A DNA stretch of 31,047 nt from a virus. Positions 11,133 through 11,580 of this stretch are shown here, one piece after another (the stretch's first letter is position 1; each line of letters begins with the position of its first letter). The stretch is taken from positions 1 through 31,047 of IMG/VR virus record IMGVR_UViG_3300025112_000105. One strand, 5' to 3'. The translations under genes were made by a program, and so were the position numbers. A model generated the notes under the pieces. That model saw only the letters and a program-made list of their open reading frames with translations. It was not told where the DNA came from and searched no databases.

Positions 11133-11156
11133 AAGCCCGCCAATTGGCGGGCTTTT
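11133..11156 (+). terminator. Rho-independent terminator of the V operon
   Basis: Nine-base perfect stem AAGCCCGCC/GGCGGGCTT with loop AATT, followed by a short T run. It comes right after the last fibre gene. The identical nine-base stem recurs at 11556-11577. Confidence 0.9.
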
Positions 11157-11218
11157 AGGTATTAGGTAGAAGCACAAAGTAAAGTTATCCACAGGCGTAA
11201 AAGACACGCGGTGTTACA

Positions 11219-11247
11219 TTGCAAATAAAATTAATAGGACATAACAT
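11219..11247 (+). promoter_or_regulatory. Sigma70-type promoter of a small cassette between the fibre and sheath genes
   Basis: TTGCAA at 11219-11224, a spacer of exactly 17 bases, and TAACAT at 11242-11247. Each hexamer matches four of six consensus positions in an AT-rich setting. It would start a transcript near 11254 that ends at the terminator at 11556-11580, about 325 bases. It is independent of the late promoters and so could be active in the lysogen. Confidence 0.55.
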
Positions 11248-11448
11248 TTGTCTTGGCTAAAGAGATGTAAGCCAAAAAAAAGAGAAGCCCCATGTCCTGG
11301 CAGACTAAGGCTTCTCATTCATGGACCCGGGGCTAGGCTCGGGCACATTCGACAGGTTCAAAATATATCAAAATTGATGCCTTCTTCAACTGTCAGTTGA
11401 AGATTATGCCTAGCCTCATTACCTTCGCTAACGCGAAAGGAGAATGAA

Positions 11449-11547
11449 ATGAGGTATTTAGATGCTAGTTTGGTGTTTTTGGAAGTGTTCACGAAAGCCA
11501 TAGAATTAGCACTTTTACTCTGGCCATTTTGGTCGCCATTCGGATAA
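11449..11547 (+). CDS. Small hydrophobic peptide, 32 residues, unknown
   Basis: ATG 11449 is preceded by AAGGAG with a six-base spacer. The peptide opens MRYLDASLVFLEVF, continues through KAIELALLLWPFW and ends SPFG. A hydrophobic helix of about 20 residues suggests membrane insertion. The ribosome site lies in a possible hairpin (CCTTCGC-TAAC-GCGAAAGG, one bulge, 11422-11440), and an eight-base-pair hairpin with loop TGTCA sits upstream at 11383-11403. This layout resembles type I toxin mRNAs. An antisense RNA was not identified and expression is unproven. Its own promoter and terminator flank it. Confidence 0.4.
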   Translation: MRYLDASLVFLEVFTKAIELALLLWPFWSPFG

Positions 11548-11555
11548 CCGAATCC

Positions 11556-11580
11556 AAGCCCGCCACCCGGCGGGCTTTTT
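11556..11580 (+). terminator. Rho-independent terminator of the small cassette
   Basis: AAGCCCGCC/GGCGGGCTT stem with loop ACCC and a run of T. The stem is base-for-base the same as the one at 11133-11156; only the loop differs. It lies just before the FI late promoter. Confidence 0.9.

What the first reader, a model, noticed from the sequence alone, without database searches (positions are those of the whole stretch)
11157..11580. Self-contained mini-cassette at the P2 Z/fun locus encoding a 32-residue hydrophobic peptide
Between the last fibre gene and FI, the place where P2 carries the exclusion gene Z/fun, lies a unit with its own sigma70-like promoter (11219-11247, 17-base spacer), a long leader with hairpins, a good ribosome site partly inside a hairpin, a hydrophobic 32-residue ORF and a strong terminator. 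It is less GC-rich than its surroundings. The design resembles type I toxin mRNAs or small membrane peptides used in exclusion. No antisense RNA was identified.
Basis: partly seen in the sequence, partly recalled or inferred. Interest (0 to 1): 0.7.

Follow-up and report, generated by a model that had tools for sequence, protein, structure and literature searches.

The report
Prophage toxin–antisense RNA cassette
A phage hidden in a Halomonas-type bacterium carries a tiny gene for a membrane peptide that is apparently held in check by a matching antisense RNA read from the opposite strand, and most of its relatives borrowed the on-switch of the host's own DNA-building-block operon to drive the peptide.

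Summary
Opposite the leader of the 32-residue ORF lies an extended -10 promoter (TTGAAG-16-TATATT) followed by a strong terminator, predicting an antisense RNA of about 82 nt (11355 to 11274, minus strand). It is the only such unit in the window, and 39,000 shuffles of the 13 leaders gave none. Relatives were found in Halomonadaceae prophages (same G–FI gap) and in bacterial genomes, several beside dusA. All 13 cassettes keep an intact 31–39-residue hydrophobic peptide, mostly ending W-P-x-W (pN/pS 0.2–0.5), a minus-strand promoter at the same place, and a covarying RNA fold. Many have a leader ORF ending at the toxin start. This is best explained as a new family of type I toxin–antitoxin module, working like hok/mok/sok or tisB/istR; no Pfam, NCBIfam, PADLOC or Rfam family matches. 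Unexpectedly, 11 relatives drive the peptide from a near copy of the host nrdHIEF promoter with paired NrdR boxes, in three genomes closest to that host's own copy. The window's cassette lacks this promoter. Expression, toxicity and NrdR control are untested.

The parts
11133..11154 (+). terminator of the upstream gene (left insulator)
   Evidence: I2, D1
11185..11193 (+). perfect DnaA-box-like TTATCCACA upstream of the sense promoter (a lead only)
   Evidence: similar site in relatives
11219..11247 (+). predicted sense (toxin mRNA) promoter TTGCAA-17-TAACAT, weak
   Evidence: read; position matches the promoter of relatives; no NrdR boxes here
11253..11275 (+). stem-loop near the 5' end of the toxin mRNA (TTGGCT/AGCCAA)
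   Evidence: sequence
11274..11355 (-). predicted antisense RNA (antitoxin), about 82 nt: 5' hairpin plus terminator hairpin and 8 U
   Evidence: fold conserved in relatives
11279..11319 (-). terminator hairpin of the antisense RNA (followed by T8 at 11281-11274)
11362..11389 (-). antisense promoter TTGAAG-16-TATATT with extended -10 (TGA)
   Evidence: same place in relatives
11331..11338 (+). leader element a (GGCTAGGC), target of the antisense 5' loop; pairs with element b
   Evidence: I7; pair probability 0.62
11408..11415 (+). leader element b (GCCTAGCC), overlapping the leader-ORF start
11406..11447 (+). possible 13-codon leader ORF (MPSLITFANAKGE) ending 1 nt before the toxin ATG
   Evidence: overlapping leader ORFs in several relatives
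11414..11454 (+). hairpin that partly sequesters the toxin ribosome site AAGGAG (11437-11442)
11449..11547 (+). 32-residue hydrophobic peptide (predicted toxin)
11556..11580 (+). terminator of the toxin mRNA

Best explanation
The cassette is a type I toxin-antitoxin module of a family not described before as far as the searches show, carried as cargo in the G-FI gap of a Halomonas-type P2-like prophage. A structured mRNA (sense promoter near 11219-11247, terminator at 11577) encodes a 32-residue helical membrane peptide whose ribosome site is partly folded away. A short antisense RNA made from the opposite strand pairs with the leader and, most likely, stops a leader ORF or ribosome entry that toxin translation depends on, and marks the duplex for RNase III. 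When the antisense RNA is lost or toxin mRNA rises, the peptide is made and inserts in the membrane, giving growth arrest or death, which favours keeping the prophage and may block competing phages. Supported by comparison: the ORF, both transcription units, the folds, the leader coupling. Inferred: expression, repression, toxicity, benefit. In most relatives (not in this window) the toxin promoter is a copy of the host nrdHIEF promoter with NrdR boxes, so there the likely trigger is a fall in dNTPs.
For: Relatives: L002, L012, L038 in the same gap; L181-L185 and L262 in genomes; L195, L196, L199 in viral contigs. All 13 ORFs (window included) are intact, 31-39 aa; pairwise pN/pS is 0.21-0.53. 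Minus-strand promoter TTGnnn-16-TGnTA at -57 to -72 from the toxin ATG in 11 of 13, with antisense RNAs of 69-88 nt; similar promoters without the TG can be read in L038 (17-bp spacer) and L262 (sequence). Promoter plus terminator are detected together in 10 of 13, against 0 of 39,000 shuffles. Antisense fold on nine relatives: 93.6% of cells paired, 11 of 19 pairs with double-sided changes, 0 of 500 shuffles as good. Leader ORFs end on the ATGA of the toxin start in L012, L181, L184, L195, L196, L199, L262, and 1 nt before it in the window and L182. The toxin ribosome site is mostly paired. The peptide is modelled as a helix (pLDDT 84).
Against: No expression, toxicity or antitoxin data. The sense promoter of this window is weak and unlike its relatives (44% identity). 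The window's leader ORF is short and lacks a good ribosome site. In the folding model, occupying the antisense target does not close the toxin site in the window (SD unpaired 0.42 against 0.45), so repression would have to act through RNase III, a leader ORF or ribosome standby. The two Billgrantia-type relatives (L038, L256) lack a clear U-tract after the antisense hairpin.
Confidence: 0.83

Rival explanations
1. A small membrane peptide for superinfection exclusion (a functional stand-in for Z/fun), with the antisense RNA as a dose control rather than an antitoxin.
For: It lies in the G-FI gap, which in related phages holds a reverse transcriptase, an AT3-SGNH acyltransferase and 2-TM proteins. 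P2-like phages of E. coli carry a hotspot of anti-phage systems (PMC9122126).
Against: The antisense promoter, terminator and leader coupling are the layout of addiction-type modules. Several copies sit outside P2 prophages, beside dusA or other chromosomal genes.
Confidence: 0.1
2. A helper of prophage induction or host lysis, as reported for hokW-sokW of an E. coli prophage.
For: hokW-sokW raises phage release after mitomycin C (PMC8621323). A promoter answering dNTP shortage would fit induction stress.
Against: The cassette has its own promoter and terminator, and copies persist without a P2 prophage nearby.
Confidence: 0.05
3. An attenuator: the ORF is a leader peptide with two Trp codons before a terminator.
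For: Sub-threshold Rfam match to Trp_leader, E 0.0014, 27.9 bits against a gathering score of 41.
Against: The match rests on the terminator stem. No biosynthetic gene follows, and relatives keep the peptide sequence, not a run of regulatory codons.
Confidence: 0.01
4. An operator decoy: the captured nrd promoter titrates NrdR (and DnaA) to raise host dNTP supply for the phage, the peptide being secondary.
For: Promoter copies with both NrdR boxes in 11 relatives.
Against: One extra site could titrate little. The peptide and antisense RNA are conserved, while the window, L038 and L256 dispense with the operator.
Confidence: 0.01

Closest known systems
hok/mok/sok (type I toxin-antitoxin)
   Same: Hydrophobic peptide; antisense RNA over the leader; leader ORF ending at the toxin start, whose start region the antisense RNA covers in several relatives (PMC4147584)
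   Different: Peptide 31-39 aa with no match to any Pfam or NCBIfam family; no Rfam match; window leader ORF short
tisB/istR-1
   Same: About 30-residue hydrophobic peptide, structured leader, stress-type toxin promoter in relatives with a separate antisense promoter (PMC4147584)
   Different: Antisense RNA is cis-encoded over the leader; relatives carry a nrdHIEF-type promoter with NrdR boxes, not a LexA-controlled one
zorO/orzO type
   Same: Antisense RNA complementary to the long leader, not to the toxin start (PMC4147584)
   Different: Different gene arrangement as I recall it; no family match
Host nrdHIEF promoter of Vreelandella
   Same: About 90 bp near-identical in 11 relatives: paired 16-bp NrdR-type boxes 15 bp apart
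   Different: Drives a toxin cassette instead of NrdH/NrdI; absent from this window
P2 Z/fun
   Same: Same place, between G and FI (own knowledge of P2)
   Different: No relative of the peptide in any phage record

Membership tests
Type I toxin-antitoxin (general) | Short hydrophobic peptide ORF under selection | tested here: met
   13 intact cassettes, pN/pS 0.21-0.53, helix model
Type I toxin-antitoxin (general) | Antisense RNA unit (promoter plus terminator) opposite the toxin mRNA | tested here: met
   (sequence level only)
Type I toxin-antitoxin (general) | Structured leader with hidden toxin ribosome site | tested here: met
   (only partly hidden in the window)
Type I toxin-antitoxin (general) | Peptide toxic; antisense RNA represses it | not testable with these tools
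   needs expression experiments
Hok family | Hok protein homology | tested here: not met
   no Pfam or NCBIfam match up to E 10
Hok family | Overlapping leader ORF coupled to the toxin | tested here: inconclusive
   ATGA overlap in seven relatives; short ORF with a 1-nt gap in the window
tisB/istR-1 | Known RNA family match; LexA-controlled toxin promoter | tested here: not met
   no Rfam match; no LexA-type CTG-N10-CAG seen by eye in the promoter
Trp leader attenuator | Rfam gathering score | tested here: not met
   27.9 against 41 bits
NrdR regulon (relatives) | Two 16-bp palindromic boxes, 15-16 bp apart, at the promoter | tested here: met
   11 cassettes score 30-34 of 44; random 119-mers 95th percentile 27, maximum 30 (box consensus from memory; spacing rule PMC12051234)
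NrdR regulon (relatives) | NrdR binds and represses | not testable with these tools
   needs gel shift and reporters
NrdR regulon (this window) | The same paired boxes | tested here: not met
   score 25, random level

The most novel reading that the evidence does not exclude
A mobile type I toxin-antitoxin family has repeatedly taken, or keeps exchanging, the host's class Ib ribonucleotide reductase promoter, so that toxin transcription follows the cell's NrdR signal of dNTP shortage: a link from nucleotide-pool sensing to a membrane toxin, parallel to the SOS link of tisB. The window's cassette would be a member that has replaced or lost this input.
Probability: 0.5. Interest if true: 0.82.

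Novelty: new variant of a known kind. Interest (0 to 1): 0.64.

Why it matters
It adds a new peptide family and antisense RNA to type I modules in a host group where the literature search found no described type I system. Its relatives offer a testable case of a mobile element capturing a host operon's promoter, possibly to sense dNTP levels. It also shows that the G-FI gap of Halomonas P2-like phages holds RNA-level cargo that protein annotation does not see.

Tried and rejected
blastn of the interval against phages and plasmids gave only terminator look-alikes, and tblastn of the peptide nothing; the family surfaced only through the neighbouring sheath gene. The first promoter pattern on viral contigs had too short a gap and found nothing. 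A pattern from the ribosome-site hairpin brought 14 viral contigs in which the peptide profile found no further member. Searching the window's promoter region in 275 genomes gave only short DnaA-box-type or chance matches, none judged to be an nrd promoter. A search of 391 genomes spread over the order found no further convincing member (one weak match, not examined). A first shuffle test with a strict stem rule missed the window's own bulged terminator and was replaced. The idea that the L181, L183 and L184 copies are decayed P2 prophages was dropped: no P2 genes within about 10 kb, and they sit beside dusA.

Full report
What is there. The window is an IMG/VR virus record with P2-like gene order; its sheath gene is most like those of Vreelandella and related Halomonadaceae prophages. 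Between the G-type gene (ends 11109) and FI (starts 11722) lies a low-GC unit bounded by two near-identical terminators 423 bp apart. The weak sense promoter TTGCAA-17-TAACAT is 8 of 12 and was not listed by the scanner.

The missing part. On the minus strand, TTGAAG-16-TATATT with an extended -10 is followed by a hairpin and eight T, predicting an antisense RNA of about 82 nt over the leader. A scan for this promoter-plus-terminator arrangement finds it once in the window on both strands, exactly here; 3000 dinucleotide-preserving shuffles of this leader, and of each of the 12 other leaders, never gave it.

Relatives. The interval has no blastn relative among phage or plasmid records. Through the sheath gene, a homologous cassette appeared in L002 (also in Vreelandella nanhaiensis, L020) and L012, and by a peptide motif and profile in L038 of Billgrantia aerodenitrificans. 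A profile search of 275 genomes of the family of G001 gave seven strong genomes, then with a better profile eight. A promoter-pattern search of viral contigs gave L195 (near-identical in L200), L196 and L199. In all 13 distinct cassettes, window included, the ORF is intact; pairwise pN/pS is 0.21-0.53. No family matched in Pfam, NCBIfam or PADLOC, and only a chance-level hit in PHROGs; no Rfam family matched. AlphaFold2 models one helix with a short C-terminal helical turn. Maximum Kyte-Doolittle values over 17 residues are 1.2-2.1, so the peptide is amphipathic to hydrophobic rather than a classic strong membrane segment.

The antisense unit is conserved. Eleven of 13 cassettes keep TTG-16-TGnTA at 57-72 nt before the toxin ATG and a 69-88 nt RNA (the hit listed there for L262 is a different, distant site). 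L262 shows TTGAAG-16-TAATTT without the TG on reading its sequence (printed), and L038 TTGGCA-17-TAGGAT. The strict joint test detects the unit in 10 of 13; L195 is missed probably for its interrupted U-tract, L038 and L262 for their promoters. On nine aligned antisense RNAs of the subtype with a GGCG stem, 93.6% of cells pair, 11 of 19 pairs show changes on both sides, and no shuffle or slid register comes near. In the window's subtype (window, L002, L182, L183, L199) the antisense fold has six pairs with double-sided changes, and a long-range leader pair joins GGCTAGGC to GCCTAGCC just before the ribosome-site hairpin; read by eye it survives in relatives through changes on both sides (L002 GGCTAGCC with GGCTAGTC, L183 TTAGGCAA with TTGCCTAA). 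In the window its pair probability is 0.62.

How it probably works. In L012, L181, L184, L195, L196, L199 and L262 a leader ORF ends on the ATGA of the toxin start, and in L181 the antisense 5' end is the complement of a good ribosome site for that ORF (AAAGGAG). This is the hok/mok/sok logic, in which translation of mok is required for hok and Sok blocks mok (PMC4147584). In the window the leader ORF is only 13 codons and ends 1 nt before the toxin; there the antisense RNA lies upstream of it, as in systems thought to use a standby site. Modelling antisense occupancy does not close the toxin ribosome site, so RNase III decay or loss of ribosome entry is the likelier route. All of this is inference from sequence.

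The promoter surprise. The sense promoter of 11 relatives is a near copy, over about 90 bp and more, of one place per genome in Vreelandella-type genomes: the pattern occurs in 58 of 275 genomes, never in its reversed control. In every one of the 30 fetched loci (L201-L230) it lies before an NrdH-like gene followed by NrdI, confirmed by NCBIfam on one example. In each of the seven genomes with two hits, one is nrdH and the other is a toxin cassette; the same seven genomes, plus Billgrantia without the promoter, are found by the peptide profile. The shared stretch holds two 16-bp boxes 15 bp apart, the spacing reported for NrdR sites (PMC12051234). Ranked among 35 nrd promoters, the cassette promoter is closest to its own host's copy in three of seven genomes (94-97%), and ranks 5, 9, 10 and 12 in the others. 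That suggests repeated capture or exchange, though species relatedness weakens the statistic. NrdR binds DNA with ATP (or ADP) plus dATP (PMC12176259), so these toxins would be made when dATP falls. No paper held combines type I toxins, antisense RNA and NrdR.

The window differs: its promoter is 44% identical to nrd promoters, its best box pair scores at random level, and no nrd promoter resembling it was found in 275 genomes. It keeps a perfect TTATCCACA (11185-11193), as does L256; the nrd copies carry a near match. This may mean DnaA or nothing.

Where the copies live. L002, L012, L038, L195, L196, L199 and the window sit before FI. L181, L183 and L184 lie next to dusA (DusA of L257 confirmed by NCBIfam, the others by eye), a known target of integrases (own knowledge); L182 lies near a serine recombinase and a helicase; L185 near sod and etf-type genes by eye. 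So the module is mobile beyond P2 phages. L256 keeps the same hairpin module but a different 59-residue membrane peptide whose start lies where other cassettes have the leader-ORF start.

Verdict. A predicted type I toxin-antitoxin module of a new family, with an unusual promoter history in its relatives. It is not filed as Hok, TisB or Z/fun, whose defining features were tested and not met or could not be tested.

Noticed in passing
L256 (same contig as L109), upstream of FI: Same leader and antisense hairpin module (CAGGCGTTGGCGCGCCTTCAAC) but with a different 59-residue membrane peptide starting at the leader-ORF position, and TTATCCACA upstream.
   Followed up: partly
L004 1826-2875; L019 and L030 near 135-790; L026 867-2795; L024 1-2499; L003, L037, L038: The G-FI gap of related phages holds varied cargo: RVT_1 reverse transcriptase (L004 confirmed), AT3-SGNH acyltransferase, sulfatase-like protein, 2-TM proteins without family.
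   Followed up: partly
L257 9036-9332, L259, L260: Cassette copies beside dusA; in L257 an integrase-like N-terminal fragment (by eye, no family match) lies beside them.
   Followed up: partly
window 11185-11193: Perfect TTATCCACA (DnaA-box consensus) before the sense promoter; also in L256, near matches in the nrd-type copies.
   Followed up: partly
L195 12864-13322: The nrd-type promoter is separated from the antisense hairpin by about 300 bp instead of about 40, as if something had been inserted.
   Followed up: no
L027, L042-L099 and most other sheath-bearing loci: No cassette found by the peptide profile: within the sets searched the family is confined to Halomonadaceae-type hosts.
   Followed up: partly
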